A DNA stretch of 33,571 nt from an uncultured Prevotellaceae bacterium. GTDB lineage: Bacteria > Bacteroidota > Bacteroidia > Bacteroidales > Bacteroidaceae. The DNA lies in contig ONMR01000027.1 in the NCBI GenBank assembly GCA_900318995.1, forward strand, positions 1 through 33,571. Direction: 5' to 3'. Of this stretch, positions 543 to 32,431 are shown in pieces. Made by a program: the position numbers and the translations under genes. Each line of letters starts with the position of its first letter. Positions within the stretch are counted from its first letter, which is position 1. The notes under the pieces were generated by a model. It made no database searches. It saw nothing but the letters and a program-made list of their open reading frames with translations, and was not told where the DNA came from.

Positions 543-582
543 AATGCTATTAATTGGTTTGTTCACTATCTAAACTGATTTA
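485..582 (-). repeat. Leader plus signal-peptide repeat, copy A
   Basis: On the minus strand this block covers the end of the preceding gene, the 37-nt gap, the start codon and the first 19 codons of the gene starting at 542. It aligns with 2721-2819 with one single-base indel and few substitutions, including an almost identical untranslated leader (AACAAACCAA followed by TTAAT and GCATTATG). Selection on protein alone would not conserve the leader, so the block looks recently duplicated. Confidence 0.75.
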
Positions 583-2778
583 CTCACAGACGGGACGGAT
601 AGGCAGGTTATAGCAGCGTTGGATTTTTTGATCTTTACAGACATCATACATCTCACCAAGCTTAAGGATGTACATAGCGTAAGCTTCGGTTGAGCCGGGA
701 TAATCACCTACATCCATTATTGCTTCATTCAGATTGCTGGACCAGTAGTAACTGCACATTTTTATTATGCCGTATCCCTGATCTGTAGTGGTGTTGATGG
801 GAAGGAATATGAAACGGTCCGTGTAACCAGGCTTGTTGCTTATCACAATGTAACCGTACACACCGTTCATGGAGGCCCAAACGAACGTACAGTTATCAAT
901 CAATTCATTACACTCATCTCGGGTGGGCAAACGCCATTTTCCGCCCAAGTTCACGTGAGCAGCGTCATCAGACCGCTGCAGGACGGTACGCTTATCAACA
1001 CGTCCCAAATCACGGGACAGATTATATTTGGATAACTGAACTTTCCAGCCGTCCTCCATACCGTTGTAGAATTTGTAGTTCTCCCATGTGTATTCAGACT
1101 TAGTTGTTGTCTCGCCCCACGCATACAGATCACCGGCAACATAGGGCTCATCGGCCCCCATATTACAGGTGGCCCACTTAACGCTCAGACCCAGGTCCAC
1201 ATACGCATAGCCGTTCTCCTTATTGGAATAATAATCCTCAGGCAACGCTATGATATGTTTGATCCTGTTTGAATCAACAACAATATCAAGTCCAGCAATG
1301 TCCACCGGCATAGGAGCGCCCGGTTTAACCTTGGGGGTATTAGGAGTCAATGTAAAATCCGTCCCTGATGGCATAGGACGCGCCTCAGGTGTGGGAACAT
1401 CGGTCTTACGGCACACGGGACGTACTGAGCAACCCAGGTCGCGCGATGTAAAGCCACGGTCTTTATCGGGTTCTTCATCCAAACCGAATACACCTGCAGA
1501 ATTGGAATAGCAGAATTCAAAACCGTACAGTGTATTATACCAGTATGAGGCATCAAAACCTGCAAAGCGGAATCCCTCACCATAATAATGACCGGCTGCC
1601 GGCAGGAATATGTAATTATCGGTATATCCCGGCTTCCTGCTCTGCACCTTGAAACCGGCTACGCCGCCAAACTCGCTGTTGCCTATTCCATACCAGGTCC
1701 AGATGGTGTTGTCAAGGTTAGTAAGTTCAGATACCTCGGCCGCACTGGGCATACGCCATTCACCGCCCCAGTTTACAGATGCGGCATCATCGGCCGGTTC
1801 AAGGATATGCTTGTTGTCCACCTGGCCCAATTTGCTGCTCACACAGTATTTTGTCATAGTTGATTCAGAACCTTCACAATAGCTGTATGAGCTCCAAGAG
1901 TAACCACGTTCCTTGCCCTTTTTCCACTTTGTTTCTTCAGCTCTGACATAACCCGGCTTATAATAAGGCTCAGTCTCACCCCACGCAAAATAGTCACCAT
2001 ACTCAACCGGGTTGTCGGCACCCACGTTACAGGTGGCCCACATGGTGCTCAAACCCAGATCAACATACCCGTGACCATTCTCCATACCCGTATAGTGGTG
2101 CTCCGGCATAGTGGTTATAACCTGCTTGCCCGTATTCACATCATAAACCTTTTCTACCAGAATCCCTTCCCACCACTCCGGGTATATTACTTCAATCCCA
2201 GAGACTTGGCCGGCATCCTTTCCGGGATAGTATGTCAATCTTATAAAAGCTGTACCTGGAGACGGGGCGTTTCTATCTTCAAGCACAACTCTGTGTGAGT
2301 TATCGTAGTAGTCCTGGTCTATTATCCTTAGAAAAACAGTTCCTTCTTTCAGTTTAAGATCACCTTTATAGGCCACAATCTGGTCTGTGGAGTACACTAA
2401 AGTATGGTCAAATACAATATCAGTAATTACCGCCTTGCCGGTTTTTGTAATCATCTTTCCGTCTTTGGCATATTCCACACCTGGCAGTTTTGACAGCAGT
2501 TCCTTCACAGTTGTACCTACAGGCACTCTACTGGTCTTATCCTTATTCAGTTTATTATCGGACTTGCTCTTTTTTGATAAAGTTCCTATCTCTATGATAT
2601 ATTCATTCTTCTGTATCTTCATGGGGCCAGGCACATAAGCCTTGACATTTGCTATCATATCGGCCGTAAGTTGCGTAAGGTTCACAGTGGAATCAGCCTG
2701 TGACTGCTGGGCACAGGCTGGAATACAAGGTGACATCAGCATGGATGTCAATGCAAGCAAGAGGACTGTTTTTCTCAT
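580..2778 (-). CDS. Secreted protein with two FISUMP (TIGR02145-type) domains
   Basis: The 732-residue product has a Sec signal peptide (about 1-24, cleavage near ACAQQ). A unique region of about 210 residues follows, including a plug-like KELLSKLPGVE motif at 92-102. Two FISUMP domains come next, at about 236-455 and 528-732, joined by a proline-rich linker. Each domain shows the family hallmarks: VDLGLS..WATCN.GA near the start, then WGET, WGG.WR.P, an IFLP motif and a terminal RPVC. FISUMP domains are common in secreted Bacteroidota and Fibrobacter proteins. Their role is not established, although a C-type-lectin-like fold has been suggested for relatives, so ligand binding is a guess. The start at 2778 is supported by the signal peptide and by a leader almost identical to that of the gene starting at 542. 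Confidence 0.85.
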   Translation of the reverse strand: MRKTVLLLALTSMLMSPCIPACAQQSQADSTVNLTQLTADMIANVKAYVPGPMKIQKNEYIIEIGTLSKKSKSDNKLNKDKTSRVPVGTTVKELLSKLPGVEYAKDGKMITKTGKAVITDIVFDHTLVYSTDQIVAYKGDLKLKEGTVFLRIIDQDYYDNSHRVVLEDRNAPSPGTAFIRLTYYPGKDAGQVSGIEVIYPEWWEGILVEKVYDVNTGKQVITTMPEHHYTGMENGHGYVDLGLSTMWATCNVGADNPVEYGDYFAWGETEPYYKPGYVRAEETKWKKGKERGYSWSSYSYCEGSESTMTKYCVSSKLGQVDNKHILEPADDAASVNWGGEWRMPSAAEVSELTNLDNTIWTWYGIGNSEFGGVAGFKVQSRKPGYTDNYIFLPAAGHYYGEGFRFAGFDASYWYNTLYGFEFCYSNSAGVFGLDEEPDKDRGFTSRDLGCSVRPVCRKTDVPTPEARPMPSGTDFTLTPNTPKVKPGAPMPVDIAGLDIVVDSNRIKHIIALPEDYYSNKENGYAYVDLGLSVKWATCNMGADEPYVAGDLYAWGETTTKSEYTWENYKFYNGMEDGWKVQLSKYNLSRDLGRVDKRTVLQRSDDAAHVNLGGKWRLPTRDECNELIDNCTFVWASMNGVYGYIVISNKPGYTDRFIFLPINTTTDQGYGIIKMCSYYWSSNLNEAIMDVGDYPGSTEAYAMYILKLGEMYDVCKDQKIQRCYNLPIRPVCE

Positions 2779-2819
2779 AATGCCATTAATTTGGTTTGTT
2801 CACTATCTAAACTGATTTA
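2721..2819 (-). repeat. Leader plus signal-peptide repeat, copy B
   Basis: This is the counterpart of 485-582, upstream of and within the start of the two-domain FISUMP gene. The genes starting at 3548 and 6591 share the signal-peptide part of the block more loosely, with matching codons around GCATTGACATGC and CTGATGTCAAT. The same export leader has therefore been placed in front of four different proteins in this locus. Confidence 0.7.
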
Positions 2820-2822
2820 TAG

Positions 2823-2856
2823 TGAAAATGCGTCTTGTGTTAAAGGCGCATTTTCA
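2823..2856 (-). terminator. Hairpin between two FISUMP genes
   Basis: TGAAAATGCG (2823-2832) and CGCATTTTCA (2847-2856) form a perfect 10-bp inverted repeat. Four further inner pairs (one G-T) leave a GTGTTA loop. It lies 26 nt downstream of the stop codon at 2883. No long U tract follows, so it could be a weak terminator or an mRNA-processing or stability hairpin within an operon. Confidence 0.45.
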
Positions 2857-2882
2857 TAATAAACCATAAATAAGAATTTACG

Positions 2883-3548
2883 TTACGGGTGGACGGGACG
2901 GACGGATTGGCCTTCGTTACGGAAACTGGCGTTACCCGTCGGCGTATCCTGAAAGAACGAATACCCGTTAGCATGATCCCAACGTCCCATAAAGAAACTG
3001 TTGGCATTATAACTTAGTGAGCTTGACCAATAAAGGCCGAATTCTGCAGGCATGCCATGTTCTATTGCGTTTGAGCTATTATGAACGTTGACCGGAAGGA
3101 AGATGGAGTTATTCTCAAATCCCTCTTTTTTACCCGATACACGATAACCGTTAACCCCGTTCACTTTTGTCCAGGTCCATATACATTCTTCACGCAGTTC
3201 ATCCAACTCTGCTCCAGTTGGCATTCGCCAGCTGCCGCCCCACTTGACATGAGCCACATCATCTTCCTGGTCCAATACCGTTTTATTGTCTTTATCGCAA
3301 TACTTGGTATAATTACCCTGCTTGCCATCCACACAGAACTTATAGGTGGCAAAACTATAGTTTGTTTTGGTTTCAGTTTCACCCCAGGAGTACAAATCAC
3401 CAGCATCCTCGGGCCTATCGGCACCTACATTACAGGTGGCCCATTTTACACTCAAACCTAGATCCACGAACTCGTGCTGTGCACTTGCGGGAACGCCAAT
3501 TGACATCAGTATGCATGTCAATGCAAAACAAAGGACTTTCTTTCTCAT
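2883..3548 (-). CDS. Secreted single-domain FISUMP protein
   Basis: The 221-residue product consists of a signal peptide (1-23, ending ASAQ) followed at once by one FISUMP domain. The domain runs from EFVDLGLSVKWATCNVGA through WGETET, a WGGSWRMPT motif, IFLP, YWSSS and a terminal SVRPV. There is no linker, membrane anchor or lipobox, so a soluble periplasmic or released protein is likely. It starts 67 nt after the stop of the BlaR1-FISUMP gene, in the same direction, and its leader and signal-peptide codons resemble those of its neighbours. It looks like the free-standing form of the domain fused to the BlaR1 protein upstream. Biochemical function is unknown. Confidence 0.85.
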   Translation of the reverse strand: MRKKVLCFALTCILMSIGVPASAQHEFVDLGLSVKWATCNVGADRPEDAGDLYSWGETETKTNYSFATYKFCVDGKQGNYTKYCDKDNKTVLDQEDDVAHVKWGGSWRMPTGAELDELREECIWTWTKVNGVNGYRVSGKKEGFENNSIFLPVNVHNSSNAIEHGMPAEFGLYWSSSLSYNANSFFMGRWDHANGYSFFQDTPTGNASFRNEGQSVRPVHP

Positions 3549-3615
3549 AATGCTATTCTTTATGTTTGTTATTTAACTGATATAAGTTTATTATGCGTAT
3601 TGTAAGAGTTTGTCG

Positions 3616-5541
3616 TTACTGACAGACGGGACGGACGGAATAACAACATTCTCGACTTCCCATGGATATAGCTGCATATCTGCTTGTAATATTAATGATG
3701 GCTGCAGAAAAACACAACACCCTTCCGTCATCTAGAGACTCGATAGAACTTGACCAATAATAACCTGTTGAGCCATATTCATAGCGAAGGTTATCTGCGG
3801 CACCGGCTGCCGGGAGAAAGATTGAGCGGTCTGTATAACCTGGTATTTTACTTGTAACACGATAACCGTTTACACCGTTTAGAGTTGTCCACTCCCAGGT
3901 ACAATTGTTACGCAATTCAACCTGTTCTTGCTTTGTAGGCATACGCCATTTACCCCCCCAGACAACATGAGCAACATCATCTTCAGGGTCAAGCGTGGTC
4001 TTGTTATCAACAGTGCCGTTTTCGCTATCCAAATTGTATTTTGTAAATCCTGACAAATTAGAACCCCACTTACTTGTCAGCCTACTTAAAGGATCGTATA
4101 TATCGGTGGGTCCGATTTCTCCCCAACCGTACAAATTTCCATTGTCTTCAGGTTTGCGGGCACCAACATTACAGGTAGCCCATTTTACAGATAAACCCAG
4201 GTCAACATATTCATGGGCTATTTTGTCATCCTTGAATATTTCAGGTCGCTTCAATTCACCTTCTATTACAGTACCTCCTTTTGTTTCGATGACACGAACG
4301 CCATTCACTGCTTCAGGACCATATAAGTCAGTTGCAGCCTTATCCATTATTGTAAACTGGGATTTAATATCCAAAAACCTGATGTTGTTTACAGTTTCCC
4401 TGTCAACTCTTTTCCCGTCAACAAAGTATATATAATCATTATCAGGTTTTTTGCCTATTCCTACCTGATCATTTCCTAATGTCAGTGTGTTCATGTCCAG
4501 CACCACTATTTTTCCTTCTTGTCCGTTAACTGTATAGGTATATACTGTATCTGACGAAACTGTAGATTCACCTGAAATCTTGTCATAAGCCACATTTGCG
4601 GTCAATGTAAGCGATATGCACATTACTACCGGTAAATAGAGGAATCTGAGCATCTGACTGCGACCGGACCTTTTGCGGTTCATCATGTCTATGCGGCTCT
4701 CTACTCCGTTGCCGTTGAAACTGGCCACGATATTGAATGCCAAGCCTCCTTGAGACTGACTGAGTAACATGAACTGATACGGACGGGCATCGGGCACGGA
4801 TTTCAGGACATCGGCATCGGCCTGCTGCTCATGTACAAGGCACAGGTCACGGCGCAATACCCAGACGGCGGGGTTGAACCACTGGAACAGTGACATGAAA
4901 TCAAGCAGCATGAGTTCCAGCGGATGACCGTGTGCTATATGGGCCTTCTCATGCTTAAGGACGTTGCTGTCAATGCCGGCATAATCCTTTTCATGCAGCA
5001 CTATGGTTCCCAGCCAACTGAACGGGCTTACGTTCTTATCGGTAACAACAATCCTGTAGCCGTCTCCGCGCTCTACGGTCTCACCACCTCTTACTATGGC
5101 CGATACCTTGAGGATGGAGCGTATCCTGAGCATGATCATTACAATAAGACCTGCCAGATATGCAGCCAGTAGGATCTGGAGCAGTACCGCGGTTTTATCC
5201 TTTTGTACTGCAGGTGCCTGGACTGTAGCGCTCTCTGAGGTCGATACGGCTGGTGCAGGGGCACTTGTTTGTGCAACAGGAGAGAAAGGTTGGATCTGAT
5301 TTACAGGAGTAGCAGCGGGCTGAGCGGATACTGCGGTCTGGGCAACCGGGCTCTTGCTGATATCACGATGTACTGTGATTACAGTTACAGGGAGAACATA
5401 GGAGAGTACAAGTGAGAGCATCAGGGCTCCGCGCTTAAGGCCGTGGAATGTCTCGCGGCGCAACAAAAGGCGGTACATAAGAACAAAGGCTATGGTTAGC
5501 AGAGCCGCCTTTCCAAGGAATAAAAGGACTTGAGTATTCAT
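3616..5541 (-). CDS. BlaR1/M56-family membrane metallopeptidase with C-terminal FISUMP domain
   Basis: The 641-residue protein has predicted transmembrane helices at about 7-26, 38-57, 117-138 and 300-316. The M56 zinc-protease site HEKAH is at 197-201, with a second conserved HEQQAD at 237-242. In BlaR1/MecR1 relatives this domain is activated by an extracytoplasmic ligand and leads to cleavage of the BlaI-type repressor. After the last helix the outer part holds a short TonB-plug-like segment (about 368-422, with YGPEAVNGV) and then a FISUMP domain (443-641) where BlaR1 would carry a penicillin-binding sensor. The ATG at 5539-5541 overlaps the blaI stop as ATGA, implying translational coupling. 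Residues 1-320 are nearly identical, with no indels, to those of the gene at 9003-12308. The signal sensed is unknown; no beta-lactamase is nearby. Confidence 0.85.
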   Translation of the reverse strand: MNTQVLLFLGKAALLTIAFVLMYRLLLRRETFHGLKRGALMLSLVLSYVLPVTVITVHRDISKSPVAQTAVSAQPAATPVNQIQPFSPVAQTSAPAPAVSTSESATVQAPAVQKDKTAVLLQILLAAYLAGLIVMIMLRIRSILKVSAIVRGGETVERGDGYRIVVTDKNVSPFSWLGTIVLHEKDYAGIDSNVLKHEKAHIAHGHPLELMLLDFMSLFQWFNPAVWVLRRDLCLVHEQQADADVLKSVPDARPYQFMLLSQSQGGLAFNIVASFNGNGVESRIDMMNRKRSGRSQMLRFLYLPVVMCISLTLTANVAYDKISGESTVSSDTVYTYTVNGQEGKIVVLDMNTLTLGNDQVGIGKKPDNDYIYFVDGKRVDRETVNNIRFLDIKSQFTIMDKAATDLYGPEAVNGVRVIETKGGTVIEGELKRPEIFKDDKIAHEYVDLGLSVKWATCNVGARKPEDNGNLYGWGEIGPTDIYDPLSRLTSKWGSNLSGFTKYNLDSENGTVDNKTTLDPEDDVAHVVWGGKWRMPTKQEQVELRNNCTWEWTTLNGVNGYRVTSKIPGYTDRSIFLPAAGAADNLRYEYGSTGYYWSSSIESLDDGRVLCFSAAIINITSRYAAISMGSRECCYSVRPVCQ

Positions 5542-5849
5542 TTGCGGTTTTCAATTTTGTCAATAATACGTTTAAGATCGTCAACAGACAGACGCTCCTC
5601 TTCAACAAGTCCAAGGACTACGCTCGAGTATGAGCTGTCAAAGTATTCGTTTACCAGCCCGTGGAAACCGTCCAGACTGTATGCCTTGCGTGACACTACA
5701 GGGATGTACTGGTAGTTGCTTCCATAAGCCTTGCGCTCCAGGAATCCGTCCTCCATCAGAGTGTGAACCTGATTGGAGAGTGTATTGAAATTGGGACGGG
5801 GTTCGAACTGCTCCATGATGATTTTTTCCTTTTTGGTGAGTTGTCTCAT
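4582..5849 (-). repeat. Duplicated blaI-blaR block, copy 1
   Basis: This block covers blaI and codons 1-320 of the BlaR1-type gene and corresponds to 11349-12647. Copy 1 is 1268 nt and copy 2 is 1299 nt. The 31-nt difference is fully explained by one indel in blaI, since the two BlaR N-termini align without gaps. Homology stops abruptly after the last transmembrane helix, at the ANVAYD codons, where the ectodomains change. Confidence 0.85.
5538..5849 (-). CDS. BlaI/MecI-type repressor with an internal deletion in the winged helix
   Basis: Starting at ATG 5847-5849 (an upstream in-frame TTG at 5855 is less likely), the product is 103 residues, shorter than the usual roughly 120-125. The N-terminus MRQLTKKEKIIMEQF and the part from EPRPNFNTLS onward match the BlaI family, as does the C-terminal dimerisation region (about 60-103). 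The segment that normally joins them, with the conserved GPMFVRE motif and helix 2 of the winged helix, is absent. The reading frame stays open because the lesion is in phase. The duplicate at 12305-12647 keeps part of the missing segment. DNA binding may be lost or altered. The gene is coupled to the BlaR1-type gene by an ATGA overlap. It has little upstream space: a REP-like palindrome ends 17 nt before the start codon. Confidence 0.75.
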   Translation of the reverse strand: MRQLTKKEKIIMEQFEPRPNFNTLSNQVHTLMEDGFLERKAYGSNYQYIPVVSRKAYSLDGFHGLVNEYFDSSYSSVVLGLVEEERLSVDDLKRIIDKIENRK

Positions 5850-5866
5850 AAGCAAACAAATTTGTG

Positions 5867-5901
5867 GTACAAAAGGGGACAGACCCCTTTTGTATCATTT
5901 T
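5867..5901. repeat. REP-like palindrome, copy 1
   Basis: TACAAAAGGGG (5868-5878) and CCCCTTTTGTA (5884-5894) form a perfect 11-bp stem with a 5-nt loop, ACAGA. It is preceded by G, giving GTAC at the base, and followed by TCATTTT. All 35 nt are identical to 32397-32431. It lies just after the FISUMP gene ending at 5908 and just before blaI. On the minus strand the 3' arm contains UUUU, so it may act as a terminator or mRNA-end hairpin. Confidence 0.8.
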
Positions 5902-5907
5902 GTGTAA

Positions 5908-6591
5908 TTACTCGCAAACAGGACGGATAGCACGGCCTAAGTTGCGTTGCACTATTGAGGTTGTAAAGTTCACATTCGGTTCAAGCCACATACCCCACGC
6001 ATCACAGATTCCGTTCAGCTCCAGTACAATTGGTTGTTCAACAAGGAAGCATGTCCAATAGAGGCCTGCATACTGCCCATCGCCTGGAAACTCACCTTCT
6101 TCAACACTTGTAGAATCTCTATACACGGTATAGGGTATAAATATGGAGCGGTCTCTATAGCCTCGTTTATTACCTGTTATACGGAACCCTTGGGTTCCAT
6201 CCTCCATCTTTACATAAGTCCAGGTACACTTGCCCATCAACTCTTTCCATTCGCCTGTTGTGGGCATACGCCAGTTCCCGCCCCATTTTACATGGGCCGC
6301 GTCATCTTCTGGTTCCAATCTGTTCTTACGGTCTTTATAGTTATACTTGGTAAAGTCATCATAACTGCCGTTTATGCTGAACTTATAATTGGACATAGTG
6401 TATTCAGACTTGGGCTCAGTCTCACCCCAGGCAAAGAGATCGCCTTTATCCTGGGGTCTTTCAGCACCCACATTACAGGTGGCCCACTTTACACTCAGAC
6501 CCAGATCCACAAACTCGTGCTGGGCACTTGCGGGAACGCCGATTGACATCAGTAAGCATGTCAATGCTATATTTTGGACTGTCTTTTTCAT
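5908..6591 (-). CDS. Secreted single-domain FISUMP protein
   Basis: I place the start at ATG 6589-6591 (MKKTVQ...) rather than 6630. The shorter form begins directly with a Sec signal peptide ending ASAQ, and the longer one would run into the upstream esterase gene. The mature part is a single FISUMP domain with EFVDLGLSVKWATCNVGA, WGETEP, WGGNWRMPT, an SIFIPY variant of the usual IFLP motif and a terminal AIRPVCE. The C-terminal part is unusual: YWTCF replaces the common YWSS. The gap to the esterase stop is 7 nt, so the two are almost certainly co-transcribed. A REP-like palindrome follows its stop. Its signal-peptide codons closely match those of the gene at 2883-3548. Function unknown. 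Confidence 0.83.
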   Translation of the reverse strand: MKKTVQNIALTCLLMSIGVPASAQHEFVDLGLSVKWATCNVGAERPQDKGDLFAWGETEPKSEYTMSNYKFSINGSYDDFTKYNYKDRKNRLEPEDDAAHVKWGGNWRMPTTGEWKELMGKCTWTYVKMEDGTQGFRITGNKRGYRDRSIFIPYTVYRDSTSVEEGEFPGDGQYAGLYWTCFLVEQPIVLELNGICDAWGMWLEPNVNFTTSIVQRNLGRAIRPVCE

Positions 6592-6598
6592 ATTGCTG

Positions 6599-8995
6599 TT
6601 ATTTGAAGAATTGTTTAACGGCCTGTTCAAGGCAGTCGCGGAAGTGCATCCATGTCTGGCCAGCCTCAGGGCCGTAGAATGTATGCTTGATACCTACATT
6701 GGTCAGATACCTGTCAAACATATCAGACAACACATACAAGGTGTCATCCTTTCCTGTTCCGATGAACACGAACTTAAGCTTATCCTTCACCTCAGTTGCG
6801 GGTTTAAACGTACCGTTCCTGAAATTGGCATCAATCTCATTGTTTTGTCCGTTAATCTGTGTCGGCGCAAAGGCTGCTACATAGTGGAACTTGTCTGGAT
6901 TGCTGAATGCTAAAGCCAGAGACTGACGGCCAGCTTTTGTATTACCTGCTAAGGCACGGTTATCGGCATCCTTCAGTACGTTGTAGTTCTTTTCTATGAA
7001 GGGGATAACATCATCCAGAAGATCCTTGTTGGAAAGCGTTAAATCATCAGAGTTATCCTGAGTTGCCTTGCCCTGGACAATCAATTCCGTATAGGGGTTG
7101 GATTCAAGCATAACCACAATCATGCGCTTGGCCTCACCCTTGGCTATCATATTGTCCAGAATGTTGTTTATCCGGCCAACCTTGAACCAACACTCATATG
7201 TTTCCAAACTTTGAAGGAGATACAATACGGGCAGTTTCTCATTGCCGTTTGGATCATAACCTGCAGGGGTATATACGCATAGAGGGCGCTCCTTGCTGTA
7301 AGCCTTTGAATAGTAATAACGGTATGAGACCTTGCCGTGAGGTACATTCTGGATGTCTTTAACACCAGGCTCAGCACCACGCACGTCAGCCAAGCTGCCT
7401 TTAAATGACTGGCTCGGGGCAATATGCATATTATTGGGGTCTGCATATGGCCTGTAATTTACCATAAACGAGTAACGATAAATATCGGGAGCAGGAGGCG
7501 TAAGGGTAAGTGTCCATACACCATTGTCATCTTTCTCCATGGCTTTTCTTGGATTACGGAAGGGTAACATATCGCAGTCAAGTTCAACACTCTCTGCATC
7601 GGGAGCCTGGAAACGGAATGTAACGGTACCGTCAGCATTGTACTCCGGTGATTTTACACCTGCGGGGAACAGGCTTGACATGAGTGAGCCTGTAAGACGT
7701 GAGGGCTCTGCACCACCCAGCTTCTCCAAGCGTACCTTCTCAGCCTCCTCAAGGCTCATGCTCTCTGCTACGGCCTTGTCAATAACCTTCTGGTCCTGGA
7801 ACAGCAGAGGAAATGACTTTTCCAGCCAGTAGCGGGCGTTCATCCAGGTATGGCCGTACTTATCGTGTGTAAATACTTTTACGTTCTTGATGTTGTGCTT
7901 GTCAAGCATCTGCATCAGGTCCTTTGAGTTTCCGTACAAGAAGTCATCGGTGCCTATGCCCAGCCAGAACAGATGTACCTTCTTGTTGAAAGCCTCTGAA
8001 TCCTCAAACTGGCTGTCACGAACCTGAGTGAATGAACTGTATGAGCACAGGTATGAGAACTTGTCAAGGTTGGCAAGTCCGATGGCCATACCCTGATTTC
8101 CACCGCGTGAGAAACCGCCTATACCACGGTGGTCAGCATCATTGATGGTGCGGTAGTTCTTTTCTACAAACGGCATCAGTACATCGGTAAAATCCTGGTT
8201 GAAGTTGTAGCCTCCACCCATGCCGCCAAAGCCGCCCATACCGCCACCTTGGCGCTGAGGCTCACGCTCGGTCTTGAGCAGTGTAGGGTTACCGTACGGG
8301 AGAACAAGGATCATATCCTTGGCCTTGCCCTGGGCAATCAGGTTGTCAAGGATAAGGTTCATCTTTCCTACCTTGAAATAGACCTCCTCGGTATCGGTAG
8401 TACCGCTGATAAGGTACATAACCGGATACTTTTTGTCCTTATTCTTGGGATCATCATAGAAAGGCGGAGTATATACTATAACGGGGATGAACATACCCAG
8501 TCCGGGTGACCAGTAGTTCAGGTAATCCACACTGCCGTGAGGAACATCCTTGAGGGCGCTCAGCTTATCGGCGCGCATATCGAGAAGACTGTTCTTGAAG
8601 GTCTCGTTGGGGAAGAAATCGGGACATTTGGGGTCCATCTGGCTGAGGCCGTCCACCTCAAAATGATAGGGGTAGATATCGGGCTCTACGGGACCAACCG
8701 TTACTGACCATATTTCATATTCACCCTTGGTCATTTCAACCGTTTCACTGAACTGGGTCCATAGCTTTACGCTTTTGGCGTTAGGATCCTGGTACTTGAA
8801 AGTCACCGTGTTGTCAGGATTGACGACTGTGGACTGGAAATCAGTCCCGAAGAATCCGACCCTAGGGGTAAATGACGTTCTTGTCGTGGGTGCACCCCAA
8901 TTACCACCATTTATAGAAGAAATGATACCCTGGGCTGATACCGTTCCTGTCATGGCTGCAGCCAGCAGGACAAGAGTAAAATCTTTAATTCTCAT
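6599..8995 (-). CDS. Secreted tandem esterase (CE1/EsD-like) with a degenerate second catalytic domain
   Basis: The 798-residue product has a signal peptide (1-21) and two repeats, each an immunoglobulin-like, CBM48/E-set-type domain followed by an alpha/beta-hydrolase of the feruloyl/acetyl-xylan-esterase-like (esterase D) group. Domain 1 (about 45-400) has the nucleophile elbow GFSRG with Ser296, acid candidates Asp350/351 and His382 in GHTW. Domain 2 (about 445-798) keeps the frame of these motifs, but Thr686 replaces Ser (GNTKAG) and Gln780 replaces His (GQTW), so it should not hydrolyse by the usual triad. Domain 1 also has a Gly/Met-rich loop at 250-262. Family members remove acyl groups from plant polysaccharides; the substrate here is unknown. 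The gene lies 7 nt after the BlaR1-LRR stop and 7 nt before a FISUMP gene. Confidence 0.85.
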   Translation of the reverse strand: MRIKDFTLVLLAAAMTGTVSAQGIISSINGGNWGAPTTRTSFTPRVGFFGTDFQSTVVNPDNTVTFKYQDPNAKSVKLWTQFSETVEMTKGEYEIWSVTVGPVEPDIYPYHFEVDGLSQMDPKCPDFFPNETFKNSLLDMRADKLSALKDVPHGSVDYLNYWSPGLGMFIPVIVYTPPFYDDPKNKDKKYPVMYLISGTTDTEEVYFKVGKMNLILDNLIAQGKAKDMILVLPYGNPTLLKTEREPQRQGGGMGGFGGMGGGYNFNQDFTDVLMPFVEKNYRTINDADHRGIGGFSRGGNQGMAIGLANLDKFSYLCSYSSFTQVRDSQFEDSEAFNKKVHLFWLGIGTDDFLYGNSKDLMQMLDKHNIKNVKVFTHDKYGHTWMNARYWLEKSFPLLFQDQKVIDKAVAESMSLEEAEKVRLEKLGGAEPSRLTGSLMSSLFPAGVKSPEYNADGTVTFRFQAPDAESVELDCDMLPFRNPRKAMEKDDNGVWTLTLTPPAPDIYRYSFMVNYRPYADPNNMHIAPSQSFKGSLADVRGAEPGVKDIQNVPHGKVSYRYYYSKAYSKERPLCVYTPAGYDPNGNEKLPVLYLLQSLETYECWFKVGRINNILDNMIAKGEAKRMIVVMLESNPYTELIVQGKATQDNSDDLTLSNKDLLDDVIPFIEKNYNVLKDADNRALAGNTKAGRQSLALAFSNPDKFHYVAAFAPTQINGQNNEIDANFRNGTFKPATEVKDKLKFVFIGTGKDDTLYVLSDMFDRYLTNVGIKHTFYGPEAGQTWMHFRDCLEQAVKQFFK

Positions 8996-9002
8996 AATTC
9001 AT

Positions 9003-12000
9003 TTATTGATTTATCCGGTTTATCATATTTTGAATTCCATTCAAATTTAATGTGGTAGGAGTGGTTGTACGCTGTCCATAATTGATTGCCAAGCCCGAAT
9101 TGTTGGTTACCTTGGACTCTTCAACCACAAGGAAAGCACTTGGACCTATCTCCTTGACCGATGAAGGAATTGTTATATACGCACTGCATCCTCTGAAGGC
9201 ATAATCACCTATACGCTCCACACCTTCTGGAATTATTATCTCCGGTATTTGAATGCAACCATCAAACGCGGCATAGCCAATCTCCTTGATGCCTTGTGGA
9301 ATTACTGAGTTTGGACAGCCCTGAATAATGGAACCTGTAGACTTGTCAATCAGCACATTGCTTCCCTCGGGTGATTCATACCTGCTGTTGCGAGAATCTA
9401 CTTTTATTGAAGTAATGGTGCGAGAATTATAAGGAGAATTTCCTATCTCTTTGACGCCTGCCGGAATGAATACTTCTGTTATTCTACGGCAATCCGAGAA
9501 AGCACGATCACCTATATATTCAAGTCCCTCAGGCAATTGGAACGGTTCCAGCATTGCGCATCCAGAGAATGCATAAGATTCAATCCTTTTAAGTGTTTTG
9601 GGGAGTGATACTTTAACCAGCTGATAGGATTGGAAAGTATAACGCTCTATGACCTTAACGCCCGATGGAATTTCTATCTCTTTCAATGCGGTTCCTTGGA
9701 ATGCTCCAGTACCTATCTCTTTTAAGCTTGAAGGCAAGATAACCGATGTCAAATTATAGCAGTTGGAAAAACAGAAGTTTCCTATTGTCTCAACTCCGTC
9801 AGGAACAACTACATTCTCAACTCTTTCCTGTCCTTCAAATGCACCAATACCGATACGCCTTACCCCCTTGCCTATAGAGATGGTTTCTATTCCTCCAGAG
9901 TAGCTGAATGCATGATCACCAATCTCTTTGACCTTTCCGGGGATAACCAGTTCCGGAGTCATCTTGCACTCATGAAAAGCACCTGATCCGATGGTCTTGA
10001 CTGTTGATGGCAGACTGAGCGGAGCGACTGATACATAGTTTGCAAACGCCTCGTTACCTATATGCTCAAGCCCCTTGGGCAGTACAATCTCTTTATTACT
10101 CTTGAGGCCTTTGAATGCCCCGTCACCTATGGCCTTTACACTTTGCGGAATGAAAGAATTCTCACATGCCAGCAGCAATGTATTGTCCTTGGTCCTGATC
10201 AGGGCATTGCAGTCTTCACGTGAATCAAAGTATTTGTTGGCAGGATTAACCTTAATTGAGGTAAAGTTAGGCTTGGTATTCTGACCTCTCATAGCCATAA
10301 CAGCCGATATTGACGTCATATCAACCTTTATCTCACTAAAGACATCCTTGCCTAATTTCTTCAGGCTGGCGGGCAGGACTAGTTCGCTATAACCGGTGCA
10401 GCCGGCCAATGCCTCATCGGCAATCTCCTCTATACCCTCCGGCAAATTCAGACCGTTTGTAAGGGTGCAATGATAGAATGCACGGTAGCCTATCTTCTTT
10501 ATGCCATTAGGTATTTTTGTAGAGGCGCAGGCCAATATCAACTCACCAGTACGGGTATTGACAATGGCATTGCAATCCTCCCTGGAATCAAACACCCGGT
10601 TACCCTGAGCCACCTTGATGGAGCGGATTCCCGTACACTCGAAGAATGCACCGTTTCCGATACTCTCCACGCTGGCTGGAATAGTGATAGCTGTCAACCC
10701 GCTGCATCCTTCAAATGCAGACTTGCCTATTGATTTTACACCCTCAGGGATAACTATTGATTTTAGTCCCTTGCATGTCTTGAAAGCGTTATCTGCTATT
10801 GAAGTGACACTTGAGGGAATCACAGACCCCTGACGTCCTACAATAAGCGTATTGGTGGCTGTCACTATAATTGCGTTACAGTTCTCACGTGAATCATAGA
10901 CCGGATTGGCGGGATCAATCTCTATCCTGGCAGGGGTGGTGTATTCCTCTCCCAGCAGGTTGTCAGCTATCTTGACTACGCTCTTGGAAATATAGATGGA
11001 CTCCAATGCAGGAAGACCACTAAATGCAGAAGTGCCTATCTCTGTAACACTGGACGGGATAACGACACGTTGTATCCTGTCAAATTGTCTAAACATGCCC
11101 AAAGAATATTCTCCTATCTTGGTTACAGGCCATGTCTTCCCTTCATGCTCAATGCTTGAAGGAATAACCAACTCACTCGGACCATTGTAGTCAGAAGCTT
11201 TTACTACACCATTCTCCACATGACGGCACAGCACTGCCCCGTCATTTTCTATGTAGTACCAAAAATCGTCAACATTGAATATAGGATTAATATAGTCACC
11301 ATAAACCGGCTCTTCTGATTCAGATGCAGATCCTGATGCTGCATTCATATCATACGCCACATTTGCGGTAAGCACAAGCGATATGCACATTACAAGCGGT
11401 ATGTAGAGGAACCTGAGCATCTGGCGGCGACCGGACCTTTTGCGGTTCATCATGTCAATGCGGCTCTCTACGCCGTTGCCGTTGAAACTTGCCACGATAT
11501 TGAATGCCAAGCCACCCTGAGACTGACTGAGTAGCATGAACTGATACGGACGGGCATCGGACAGGGAGTTCAGTACATCGGCATCGGCCTGCTGCTCATG
11601 CACAAGACATAGGTCGCGACGGAGAACCCATACAGCCGGGTTGAACCACTGGAACAGTGACATGAAATCAACCAGCATGAGCTCAAGGGGATGGCCGTGC
11701 GCTATGTGGGCTTTCTCATGCCTTAAAACATTGGCATCAATGCCGGCATAGTCCATTTGACGCACCACTATGGTTCCAAGCCAGCTGAACGGGCTTACGT
11801 TCTTATCGGTAACAACAATCCTGTAGCCGTCACCGCGTTCAACTGTCTCTCCACCTCTTACTATGGCCGATACCTTAAGGATGGAGCGTACCCTGAGAAT
11901 AAGCATTACTATGAGACCTGCCAGATAAGCCGCCATCAGGCACACCAACAGCAAGTGGGTGATATCCCTCTTTACTGCCGGTGCCTGAATAGCAACATTT

Positions 12001-12308
12001 TCAGTTTCTGTAATAATAGGAGCAACAGCGGTTGTTTCAACTGCAGGAGAGAAGGGTTGGATTTGATTTATAGGAGTAGCAGCGGGCTGAGCGGATGCAG
12101 CGGTCTGGGCAACCGGGCTCTTGCTGATATCACGATGTACTGTAATGACAGTTACAGGGAGAACATAGGAGAGTACAAGCGAGAGCATCAGGGCTCCGCG
12201 CTTAAGGCCGTGGAATGTTTCACGACGCAACAAAAGGCGGTACATAAGAACAAAGGCAATGGTTAGCAGAGCCGCCTTTCCAAGGAATATAAGGACTTGA
12301 GTATTCAT
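9003..12308 (-). CDS. BlaR1/M56-family membrane metallopeptidase with BspA-type leucine-rich-repeat ectodomain
   Basis: The 1101-residue product has an N-terminal half almost identical to that of the gene at 3616-5541. Helices are at about 7-26, 38-57, 117-138 and 300-316, HEKAH at 197-201 and HEQQAD at 237-242. From about residue 380 to 1060 the FISUMP domain is replaced by BspA-type (LRR_5) repeats with cores like IPSSVTEIGTSAFSG. Four longer units interrupt the series at about 466-500, 566-601, 688-722 and 970-1004; three carry a DSRE.CNA motif and the fourth a variant. BspA repeats mediate binding to host or microbial surfaces in several species, so a ligand-sensing ectodomain is plausible but inferred. 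Its start overlaps the end of the broken blaI as ATGA. The esterase gene follows after 7 nt, tying it to that operon. Confidence 0.85.
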   Translation of the reverse strand: MNTQVLIFLGKAALLTIAFVLMYRLLLRRETFHGLKRGALMLSLVLSYVLPVTVITVHRDISKSPVAQTAASAQPAATPINQIQPFSPAVETTAVAPIITETENVAIQAPAVKRDITHLLLVCLMAAYLAGLIVMLILRVRSILKVSAIVRGGETVERGDGYRIVVTDKNVSPFSWLGTIVVRQMDYAGIDANVLRHEKAHIAHGHPLELMLVDFMSLFQWFNPAVWVLRRDLCLVHEQQADADVLNSLSDARPYQFMLLSQSQGGLAFNIVASFNGNGVESRIDMMNRKRSGRRQMLRFLYIPLVMCISLVLTANVAYDMNAASGSASESEEPVYGDYINPIFNVDDFWYYIENDGAVLCRHVENGVVKASDYNGPSELVIPSSIEHEGKTWPVTKIGEYSLGMFRQFDRIQRVVIPSSVTEIGTSAFSGLPALESIYISKSVVKIADNLLGEEYTTPARIEIDPANPVYDSRENCNAIIVTATNTLIVGRQGSVIPSSVTSIADNAFKTCKGLKSIVIPEGVKSIGKSAFEGCSGLTAITIPASVESIGNGAFFECTGIRSIKVAQGNRVFDSREDCNAIVNTRTGELILACASTKIPNGIKKIGYRAFYHCTLTNGLNLPEGIEEIADEALAGCTGYSELVLPASLKKLGKDVFSEIKVDMTSISAVMAMRGQNTKPNFTSIKVNPANKYFDSREDCNALIRTKDNTLLLACENSFIPQSVKAIGDGAFKGLKSNKEIVLPKGLEHIGNEAFANYVSVAPLSLPSTVKTIGSGAFHECKMTPELVIPGKVKEIGDHAFSYSGGIETISIGKGVRRIGIGAFEGQERVENVVVPDGVETIGNFCFSNCYNLTSVILPSSLKEIGTGAFQGTALKEIEIPSGVKVIERYTFQSYQLVKVSLPKTLKRIESYAFSGCAMLEPFQLPEGLEYIGDRAFSDCRRITEVFIPAGVKEIGNSPYNSRTITSIKVDSRNSRYESPEGSNVLIDKSTGSIIQGCPNSVIPQGIKEIGYAAFDGCIQIPEIIIPEGVERIGDYAFRGCSAYITIPSSVKEIGPSAFLVVEESKVTNNSGLAINYGQRTTTPTTLNLNGIQNMINRINQ

Positions 12309-12647
12309 TTGCGGTTTTCAATTTTGTCAATAATACGCTTAAGATCGTCAACAGACAGGCGCTCCTCTTCAACAAGTCCAAGGACTACGCTTGAGTATGA
12401 GCTGTCAAAGTATTCATTTACCAACCCGTGGAAACCGTCCAGACTGTATGCCTTGCGTGATACGGCAGGTGAGTACTGGTAGTTGCTTCCATAAGCCTTG
12501 CGCTCCAGGAATCCGTCCTCCATCAGAGTGTGAACCTGATTGGAGAGTGTATTGAAATTGGGACGGGGTTCGTTCACGGACAAACATTGGTCCATAAGTC
12601 CAGAACTGCTCCATGATGATTTTTTCCTTTTTGGTGAGTTGTCTCAT
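11349..12647 (-). repeat. Duplicated blaI-blaR block, copy 2
   Basis: This is the counterpart of 4582-5849 (see there). Long runs are identical at DNA level, for example around the zinc-protease motif and the first 60 codons of BlaR. The main differences are in the less conserved loop of residues 70-120 and the 31-nt indel in blaI. Confidence 0.85.
12305..12647 (-). pseudogene. BlaI/MecI-type repressor, frameshifted
   Basis: From ATG 12645-12647 the frame reads MRQLTKKEKIIMEQFWTYG and continues through PMFVRE, the normal start of a BlaI winged helix. It then leaves the family frame and stops at 12414. The rest of the repressor (EPRPNFNTLS to the C-terminus) continues in another frame down to 12305. 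The break is at a tandem GTTCGTTC (12568-12575, plus strand). Compared with family members, several codons of helix 2 are also missing there. An internal ATG at 12593-12595 could restart translation, giving a 96-residue product without helices 1 and 2. Coupling to the BlaR gene by ATGA is kept. The lesion could be a real mutation or a sequencing error, but the duplicate at 5538-5849 is damaged at the same point. Confidence 0.75.
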
Positions 12648-12668
12648 AAGCAAACACAAATTGATTTT

Positions 12669-12699
12669 GACGCAAATCAAATTATTTTTGATATACGTC
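12669..12699. promoter_or_regulatory. Operator-like dyad upstream of blaI copy 2
   Basis: GACGCAAATCAAA (12669-12681) and TTTGATATACGTC (12687-12699) are inverted repeats matching at 11 of 13 positions around a 5-nt centre. The dyad lies 22-52 nt before the blaI start, where an autoregulating repressor would bind. No perfect TAnnTTTG box was found in this gap. The dyad is absent upstream of blaI copy 1. It differs from the TACA/TGTA operators known for staphylococcal BlaI, so the cognate regulator is unproven. Confidence 0.5.
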
Positions 12700-23737: not shown

Positions 23738-25009
23738 TTAAAGGTCCTGACCTATGTCCCTGCGGAAATATTTCTTCTCAAAATCAATCAGGCTGGCTCC
23801 CTTGAATGACAGCGCCAGAGCCTCCTCCTTGTCCTTGCCGTAAGAGCTTACGGCTATCACGCGACCACCTGCGGTGACAACGTTTCCGTTTGCATCGAAA
23901 GCTGTGCCTGCATGGAACACCACGCTGTCGGTAACCTTGTCTATTCCGCTTATTACATAGCCCTTGTCATAGTGCTGGGGATATCCGCCCGATACCAGCA
24001 TAACGCATACGGCCGATCTGGGATCCTGCTCCAGGGTCTTGGTATCCAGGTTGCCGGCTGCAACACCTTTGAACAGTTCCACTATATCGCTTTTGAGACG
24101 GAGCATAACGGTTTCTGTCTCCGGGTCACCCATGCGGCAATTGTACTCTATAACCTTGGGGTCACCGTCCACATTTATCAGACCAAAGAATATGAATCCC
24201 TTGTAGTCCAGGCCGTCCTGTGCCAGGCCATCTACTGTGGGACGGATTATCCGGTCCTCAACTTTCTGCATCCACTCCTTAGTGGCAAAGGGGACAGGTG
24301 ATACGGAGCCCATGCCGCCGGTGTTAAGACCGGTGTCATGCTCACCTATACGCTTGTAATCCTTGGCCTCGGGCAGTATCTTGTAGTGTTTGCCGTCAGT
24401 CAGAACAAATACCGAGCACTCTATGCCGCTCATGAACTCCTCAATCACAACGCGGGACGATGCATTGCCGAACATACCACCCAGCATCTCCTTAAGCTCC
24501 CTCTTCGCCTCGTCCAGGGTAGGCAGTATCAACACACCCTTGCCTGCGCACAGGCCGTCGGCTTTGAGTACATAGGGAGCCTTGAGTGTCTCCAGGAACT
24601 TGAGACCTTCCTCCAGGTTCTCGCCTGTGAATGTCTGATATGCAGCTGTAGGTATGTTGTGGCGCTGCATGAAACGCTTGGCAAAATCCTTGCTGCCCTC
24701 CATCTGTGCGGCGGCCTTGGACGGGCCGATGACGGGGATGGATTTCAGAGCCGCGTCATTCTTGAAATAGTCATAGATGCCGTTTACCAGAGGATCCTCG
24801 GGGCCTACAACTACCATGTCTATCTTCTTGTCAAGGACGAATGCCTTGATGGCGTCAAAGTCACTGGCCTTTATGGCTACGTTCTCACCTACGTTTGCGG
24901 TGCCGGCATTGCCGGGAGCTATGAAAAGCTTTTCAAGCTGCGGGCTTTGCGCTATCTTCCAGGCCAGAGCATGCTCGCGGCCTCCGCTTCCTAGTAACAG
25001 AATCTTCAT
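23738..25009 (-). CDS. purD: Phosphoribosylamine-glycine ligase
   Basis: PurD (GAR synthetase) joins glycine to 5-phosphoribosylamine using ATP in step two of purine synthesis. The 423-residue length is standard. Motifs include [12 protein letters not shown] at the start, the [19 protein letters not shown] segment before the ATP-grasp domain, [11 protein letters not shown], and [12 protein letters not shown] in the metal/ATP site. The ATG overlaps the stop of the methyltransferase gene as ATGA (25006-25009), so it is expressed from the promoter of that gene. Confidence 0.97.
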
Positions 25010-32397: not shown

Positions 32398-32431
32398 TAC
32401 AAAAGGGGACAGACCCCTTTTGTATCATTTT
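32397..32431. repeat. REP-like palindrome, copy 3
   Basis: It is identical over 35 nt to 5867-5901, with a perfect 11-bp stem (32398-32408 with 32414-32424) and loop ACAGA. It fills the whole gap between the convergent stop codons of the transglycosylase and metK genes, so it is well placed as a bidirectional terminator. TTTT in the 3' arm on either strand supports this. Confidence 0.85.

What the first reader, a model, noticed from the sequence alone, without database searches (positions are those of the whole stretch)
3616..12308. Two near-identical BlaR1/M56 sensor proteases with exchanged ectodomains (FISUMP versus BspA LRR)
Residues 1-320 of the two proteins, including all membrane helices and the HEKAH site, align without a gap and are almost identical. 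Just after the last helix one continues into a plug-like segment plus FISUMP domain and the other into about 680 residues of BspA repeats. In known BlaR1 proteins this outer part is the ligand sensor. Free-standing FISUMP proteins and a secreted esterase are encoded in the same direction at 7-104 nt spacing. This suggests a modular surface-sensing protease system in which the sensor module is swapped while the protease is kept, possibly monitoring secreted partners or their ligands.
Basis: partly seen in the sequence, partly recalled or inferred. Interest (0 to 1): 0.8.

Follow-up and report, generated by a model that had tools for sequence, protein, structure and literature searches.

The report
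Interchangeable sensor cassettes on membrane protease
Rumen bacteria of one genus keep the same membrane protease and repressor pair but exchange, between gene copies and between species, the part of the protease that faces outward, usually together with the secreted-protein gene that follows it, which looks like a natural plug-and-play sensor system.

Summary
The two M56 proteases share 278 of 320 N-terminal residues without a gap and diverge after codon 320: one carries a plug-like plus FISUMP-like domain, the other a BspA-type LRR. It is not a one-genome oddity: the subfamily occurs in 13 of 37 genus genomes, 18 loci. Ectodomain and head have separate histories: monophyly of the LRR-alpha, FIS-alpha or FIS-beta type on the head tree is rejected (AU p <= 6.6e-5), and DNA similarity between different types stops near nt 960. 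Fifteen of 16 readable loci pair one ectodomain type with one downstream secreted gene. FIS-beta ectodomains are 98.6-99.8% identical between species whose two tested core genes are 86-93% identical. In the window an LRR-plus-esterase cassette sits where three relatives carry a FIS-alpha ectodomain, with homologous DNA on both sides. A second M56 subfamily shows a like break.

Cautions: both BlaI repressors here are damaged, probably by assembly. The outer part should be periplasmic, not surface. FISUMP membership is weak. Ligands and BlaI cleavage are untested.

The parts
12661..12681 (-). Dyad-like sequence TTTGATTTGCGTCAAAATCAA upstream of BlaI_B; candidate operator
   Evidence: Only exact copy in the genome, one further site with 3 mismatches, reversed-pattern control 0; similar sequence upstream of first-module BlaI in several relatives. 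Operator role is inference.
12305..12647 (-). BlaI_B, penicillinase-repressor family; frame broken in this assembly (17 nt shorter than 13 loci of relatives)
   Evidence: Penicillinase_R E=9.5e-13 from the C-terminal frame; length comparison and exact 100-nt repeat shared with BlaI_A near the break
11349..12308 (-). M56 head B (codons 1-320): membrane segments and HEKAH/ExxxD protease
9003..11348 (-). Ectodomain of protein B: BspA-type LRR (type LRR-alpha)
   Evidence: LRR_5 E=1.8e-121; 88-97% aa identity to three relatives and 95.5% to G026
6599..8995 (-). Secreted two-domain esterase with CBM48-like part, partner gene of LRR-alpha
   Evidence: Esterase 1.4e-34 with 2 stretches, CBM_48 5.1e-10; follows LRR-alpha in 5 of 5 loci, cut by the contig end in two (G003, G002)
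6605..11348 (-). Exchanged segment: LRR-alpha ectodomain plus esterase, standing where G006, G031 and G032 have a FIS-alpha ectodomain
   Evidence: Head similarity ends at nt 959 (G006, G031) or 905 (G032); similarity resumes at nt 5703-5791 (signal peptide, 81-82%) and from nt 5817 to 9540-9605 at 90.6-93.7%
5908..6591 (-). Secreted FIS-like protein (227 aa), shortened relative of the partner of FIS-alpha
   Evidence: 89-90% aa identity in the FIS domain to the 301-aa partner of FIS-alpha in three genomes
5538..5849 (-). BlaI_A, in frame but 48 nt shorter than 13 loci of relatives; part of the winged helix missing
   Evidence: Penicillinase_R profile positions 23-114 only
4582..5541 (-). M56 head A (codons 1-320)
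3616..4581 (-). Ectodomain of protein A: plug-like segment plus FISUMP-like domain (type FIS-beta)
   Evidence: 97-100% aa identity to three relatives; plug segment hits SusC family
2883..3548 (-). Secreted 221-aa FIS-like protein, partner gene of FIS-beta
   Evidence: Follows FIS-beta in 4 of 4 loci (split into two ORFs in G031); 99.7-100% nt identity between species in the 3 pairs measured
580..2778 (-). Secreted protein with two FIS-like domains and the shared signal peptide

Best explanation
BlaR1-type membrane sensor proteases built as a constant head plus an exchangeable cassette. The head (BlaI repressor, four membrane segments, cytoplasmic zinc protease; about 1.3 kb) is conserved. The cassette is the periplasmic ectodomain from about codon 320, usually together with the secreted protein encoded just behind it. 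Cassettes are exchanged by recombination between gene copies and between species: the homologous head would serve as the left anchor; downstream genes, or their shared signal-peptide sequence, as the right anchor (anchors inferred from where similarity starts and stops). Shown here: the modular anatomy, the recurrent break, separate head and cassette histories, strong but not absolute linkage of ectodomain and partner, and near-identity of cassettes between species. Inferred from BlaR1: the ectodomain binds a ligand in the periplasm, the protease cleaves BlaI, and the operon with its secreted partner is derepressed. Likely ligands are plant-fibre glycans or esters, or envelope components, because one partner is an esterase and relatives come from forestomachs. 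The loop that fills the sensor site in BlaR1 (EL1) does not vary with ectodomain type, while the last membrane helix does, so coupling through that helix is more likely; breakpoints lying in that helix could give the same pattern.
For: 13 of 37 genus genomes carry the subfamily, 18 loci; ectodomain readable in 17, next gene in 16. AU test on 15 heads rejects monophyly of each of the three types tested alone (p 1.2e-5 LRR-alpha, 6.6e-5 FIS-beta, 8e-77 FIS-alpha). Four different-type pairs against G002: similarity stops at nt 959 in two, 985 and 915 in the others; the same-type pairs of the same call align through codon 320 and past the end of the M56 gene. Ectodomain nt identity exceeds both core genes in 18 of 23 same-type pairs, head identity in 3 of 23 (counted). 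Window segment flanked by homology on both sides in 3 of 3 relatives compared. Head similarity not clearly higher within types (overall p=0.07; EL1 p=0.11; last 30 aa p=0.004). Second subfamily: BlaI plus head 95.9% nt, break at nt 933, unrelated ectodomain, 192-nt stretch alike downstream. Fold: the top five PDB hits are BlaR1. Catalytic residues H197, E198, E238, D242 in 28 of 28 and H201 in 27 of 28 M56 rows. BlaI directly upstream in 117 of 122 M56 genes, some loci present twice.
Against: One of 16 loci (G003 C84) has an ectodomain 75% identical to FIS-beta but the FIS-alpha partner, and the window keeps a FIS-alpha-type partner without its sensor, so linkage is not absolute. The heads are mosaic themselves, so one tree describes them poorly and the AU test is approximate. 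Two same-site comparisons cross weak assembly points: Ns inside BlaI in G002 and the damaged BlaI_B in the window. Five of 23 pairs do not exceed both core genes, and only two core genes were used, one of which (PurD) seems to recombine too. No ligand, BlaI cleavage or expression data. Both window BlaI genes are damaged. The ectodomain is poorly modelled (pLDDT 51-52).
Confidence: 0.7

Rival explanations
1. Old tandem paralogues with fixed ectodomains, whose heads are homogenised by gene conversion inside each genome; ectodomains never move.
For: Tandem pairs occur in the window and three relatives (G006, G031, G032), with the FIS-beta module second in each; BlaI and the first 80 codons are nearly identical between the window copies.
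Against: Heads do not cluster by genome: nt identity within one genome 78.6-91.4%, while winA is 93.6% to G006a of another species and type. FIS-beta ectodomain and partner are 98.6-100% identical between species with the two core genes at 86-93%. Different cassettes at one operon position with both flanks kept.
Confidence: 0.15
2. Assembly chimeras in metagenome-assembled genomes at near-identical repeats.
For: BlaI_A and BlaI_B are 48 and 17 nt shorter than 13 loci of relatives, with an exact 100-nt repeat shared by the two copies near the break; the other closely related pair in this genome (C14, C22) also lacks 54 and 89 nt at the BlaI/M56 junction against G006.
Confidence: 0.06
3. The outer domains are not sensors but display or adhesion modules; the M56 part is a membrane anchor or is decaying.
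For: BspA-type LRR proteins are linked with adhesion (recalled); FISUMP has been suggested as a possible cohesin analogue (passage in PMC4704652). BlaI damaged in this assembly.
Against: Catalytic motifs intact in both window proteins and conserved in 27-28 of 28 M56 rows; BlaI directly upstream in 117 of 122 and full length in the 13 subfamily loci measured.
Confidence: 0.15

Closest known systems
BlaR1/MecR1-BlaI/MecI of staphylococci and bacilli (PMC9834060, abstract and passages seen)
   Same: M56 gluzincin with HExxH and ExxxD, four membrane segments, C-terminal outer domain, BlaI gene beside it; BlaR1 chains are the top five fold matches
   Different: No penicillin-binding sensor found; FIS-like or LRR outer domain; ectodomain exchanged as a cassette with the next gene; EL1 does not vary with the sensor type
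PetP/PetR of cyanobacteria (commentary PMC7896320, passages seen)
   Same: BlaR1-family protease and BlaI-family regulator used for a signal other than beta-lactams
   Different: Copper signal; no exchangeable ectodomain mentioned in those passages
M56-TonB_C proteins of Bacteroidales (own genome C8 and C34)
   Same: Same family, BlaI partner, other C-termini behind the head
   Different: TonB_C or CarboxypepD_reg domains instead of FIS or LRR
Rhs / polymorphic toxins (recalled, not tested)
   Same: Constant head, exchangeable tail with a cognate downstream gene
   Different: Here the head is a sensor protease and nothing found indicates a toxin

Membership tests
Peptidase M56 / BlaR1-like protease | PF05569 above cut-off | tested here: met
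   43.4 and 35.8 bits, cut-off 31
Peptidase M56 / BlaR1-like protease | HExxH and ExxxD zinc motifs | tested here: met
   HEKAH at 197, EQQAD at 238-242 in both; H197, E198, E238, D242 in 28 of 28 and H201 in 27 of 28 M56 rows of alignment A2
Peptidase M56 / BlaR1-like protease | Four membrane segments and BlaR1 fold of the head | tested here: met
   hydropathy, model helices 3-26, 33-52, 116-152, 294-314, BlaR1 chains ranks 1-5 (8exr TM by target 0.55)
BlaR1 beta-lactam sensor proper (NCBIfam NF000326) | Equivalog score cut-off 400 and penicillin-binding sensor domain | tested here: not met
   26.1 and 26.9 bits only; no penicillin-binding or beta-lactamase family hit
BlaR1-type signalling | Cleavage of the adjacent BlaI on ligand binding | not testable with these tools
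   needs biochemistry
BlaI/MecI repressor | Complete winged helix | tested here: not met
   Window copies match profile 23-114 and 32-114 of 115; 13 subfamily loci of relatives are of one full length
FISUMP (TIGR02145 / PF09603) | Profile match of window proteins | tested here: not met
   No TIGR02145 hit at E<=0.001; no PF09603 hit up to E=10 (HMMER filters apply); weak Lcl_C in two of four
BspA-type LRR (PF13306) | Profile match above cut-off | tested here: met
   400 bits, cut-off 27.7
Anti-phage defence systems (PADLOC) | Any model hit | tested here: not met
   0 hits for 6 proteins

The most novel reading that the evidence does not exclude
A genus-wide pool of sensor cassettes: one BlaI-M56 head works with many unrelated outer domains, each usually travelling with its own secreted effector, and species acquire new senses by recombining a cassette behind codon 320. 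Coupling runs through the last membrane helix rather than through the EL1 loop used by BlaR1, so the head would be a naturally universal receptor chassis.
Probability: 0.45. Interest if true: 0.82.

Novelty: new variant of a known kind. Interest (0 to 1): 0.7.

Why it matters
BlaR1-type proteases are known chiefly as beta-lactam sensors. Here nature shows which part is the reusable chassis, where it can be cut, and that unrelated sensors with their neighbouring secreted genes can be attached. That makes the open question of how the outer domain signals to the inner protease testable with natural chimeras, and it suggests how gut bacteria of herbivores could gain new responses.

Tried and rejected
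Sensor derived from its partner (as the BlaR1 sensor resembles beta-lactamase; recalled): not supported for FIS types; the two sensor FIS domains are closest to each other (63-66%), while sensor-to-partner identities are 43-53%.

EL1 loop matched to ectodomain: not supported (p=0.11).

Scattered regulon of the upstream dyad: not found; one exact site and one 3-mismatch site in the genome.

Perfect ectodomain-partner linkage: my note after one search counted G003 C84 as FIS-alpha; two searches showed a FIS-beta-like third type, so the count is 15 of 16, and the perfect-association probability printed is not used.

Fold of the FIS ectodomain: model too poor (pLDDT 51); no fold search was run on it. 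In alignment A2 the four FIS-only rows were placed on the head columns, so the outer part of the full-length model is not to be trusted; the head is covered by 28 M56 rows.

Fusion outside the genus: (301 family genomes) lists matches spanning head and FIS only in G000, G006, G009 and G033, but it scored about five candidates per genome, did not include G031 or G032 in its list, and its list was cut, so absence elsewhere is not shown.

Literature: ten searches listed nothing that I recognised as being on exchangeable ectodomains of M56 proteins; most hits were seen as listings only, and the library lacks most subscription journals and all preprints.
Full report
Setting. The window is the whole contig C32 of an 86.8%-complete, 2.50-Mb genome. 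The genome holds 12 M56 genes; the 98 other genomes drawn from the order hold 0 to 6 (that sample has one other genome of the same family). Each of the 12 has a BlaI-family gene beside it; in C22 the two are fused in one frame, and in C15 BlaI lies behind M56.

Observation. Confirmed as described under the observation check: 278/320 identical residues, no gap, sharp loss of similarity after codon 320. The own genome has a second pair of like design: C14 (LRR_5) and C22 (FIS-like), sister to the window pair in the head tree.

Recurrence. A genus search with the head (37 genomes, own included) found the window subfamily in 13, at 18 loci. The ectodomain is readable in 17 of 18 (G028 is cut by its contig end): LRR-alpha 5, LRR-beta 2, FIS-alpha 5, FIS-beta 4, and one FIS-beta-like third type. 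Between the two FIS types and between the two LRR types aa identity is 55-60%.

Separate histories. For 15 heads (left out: G026 with a split frame, G028 truncated, G003 C84 with Ns) the head tree mixes types, for example G032a (FIS-alpha) with G002 (LRR-alpha) at support 100; other mixed pairs have support 64-89. Forcing LRR-alpha, FIS-beta or FIS-alpha to be monophyletic is rejected by the AU test (p 1.2e-5, 6.6e-5, 8e-77). The heads are themselves mosaic (segment identities), so a single tree is an approximation. Heads are not clearly more alike within types than between types overall (p=0.07), nor in the EL1 loop (p=0.11) or protease part (p=0.14); the last 30 residues are (p=0.004). That fits breakpoints in or just behind the last helix.

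Breakpoints. In four heterotypic pairs against G002, similarity covers BlaI and head and stops at nt 959 (G031a, G006a), 985 (G033) and 915 (G032a); homotypic pairs run through codon 320 and past the M56 gene. The clearest case is the window against G006, G031 and G032: head similar to nt 959, 959 and 905; no similarity reported over the LRR ectodomain and esterase; similarity resumes at the signal peptide of the next gene (nt 5703-5791) and continues from 5817 to 9605, 9605 and 9540 at 93.7, 91.7 and 90.6%, including the second BlaI, the M56-FIS-beta gene and its partner. The gene directly behind the cassette (5908-6591) is an 89-90% relative of the FIS-alpha partner, consistent with a FIS-alpha module that was overwritten. 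This comparison needs no join across the damaged BlaI_B.

Partner linkage. The next gene is readable in 16 loci: LRR-alpha is followed by the esterase in 5 of 5 (cut by the contig end in two), LRR-beta by a 195/196-aa protein in 2 of 2, FIS-alpha by a 301-aa FIS-like protein in 4 of 4, FIS-beta by the 221-aa FIS-like protein in 4 of 4; the third FIS type (G003 C84) has the 301-aa protein and breaks a strict rule. In G031 both partner genes are split into two ORFs.

Transfer. In 23 same-type pairs, ectodomain nt identity exceeds that of both YchF and PurD in 18; head identity does so in 3 (counted). FIS-beta is 98.6-99.8% identical and its partner 99.7-100% (three pairs measured), at core identities of 86-93%. 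The five exceptions are G034-G011 (70.6%), G006a-G031a, G031a-G032a, winB-G002 and G027-G003. PurD is 100% identical between the window genome and G033 while YchF is 89%, so interspecies recombination may be common here in general.

Sites. Left flanks place window and G034 at one site; G002, G006, G009, G031, G032 and G033 at a second; G026, G027 and G028 at a third; G011 is apart and G003 too short. LRR-alpha thus occurs at three sites, and the second site holds FIS-alpha in five genomes and LRR-alpha in one; the latter, G002, has a 106-base run of N inside BlaI, so its flank-to-head join is less sure.

Second subfamily. G006 (LRR, 233 aa) and G027 (unrelated 530-aa ectodomain) share BlaI and head at 95.9% nt up to nt 933, then nothing until a 192-nt stretch of 84.9% downstream; own C14 against G027 gives 90.6% and a 194-nt stretch of 91.8%. 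The short LRR type is followed by one family of 416-467-aa proteins in 5 of 5 distinct loci.

BlaI. In the window BlaI_A is 48 nt and BlaI_B 17 nt shorter than 13 loci of relatives, which all agree in length (G002 has Ns); an exact 100-nt repeat shared by the two copies lies directly at the break. C14 and C22 lack 54 and 89 nt at the BlaI/M56 junction against G006; seven other compared relatives have only gaps of 8-19 nt further upstream. All four damaged places lie in the two closely related pairs of this assembly, which points to assembly error; real decay is not excluded. Intact copies exist in relatives.

Mechanism. The head has the BlaR1 motifs, helices and fold. In BlaR1 the outer domain binds the ligand, displaces the EL1 loop, and the inner protease cleaves BlaI (passages of PMC9834060). 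By analogy the operon here would be derepressed on ligand binding; this is inference. That EL1 does not follow the ectodomain type argues against a sensor-specific EL1 plug. In a Gram-negative cell the outer domain would be periplasmic (established anatomy). The esterase partner resembles xylanase/feruloyl-esterase proteins (NCBIfam NF041944, 211 bits, far below the 1200 cut-off), and TIGR02145 domains have been suggested as cohesin analogues in Fibrobacter (passage of PMC4704652); a link to plant-fibre sensing is plausible but untested.

Verdict.

Noticed in passing
window 5876-5897 and 32406-32427: TGATACAAAAGGGGTCTGTCCC, part of a hairpin-like element found 67 times in the genome at up to 2 mismatches (reversed control 0), in several places as facing pairs; REP-like.
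   Followed up: partly
L031 8453-12031 (own C22): BlaI and M56 fused in one 1192-aa frame; 89 nt missing at the junction against G006, 54 nt missing in the sister C14.
   Followed up: partly
window 580-6591; L066-L078: 25 ORFs share a signal peptide at mean 78% nt identity while the next 66 nt average 37%: a possible anchor for recombination among secreted-protein genes.
   Followed up: partly
window 23738-25009: PurD gene 100% identical to G033 although YchF, about 9 kb away in the window, is 89% identical: possible interspecies exchange outside the M56 loci.
   Followed up: no
own genome, 12 loci: Expansion of BlaI-M56 pairs: 12 against 0-6 in 98 other genomes of the order; several outer domains match no Pfam family.
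   Followed up: partly
window 26620-31331: Two adjacent genes that look like glycoside hydrolases of family 31 (recalled from a look at the sequence, not searched).
   Followed up: no
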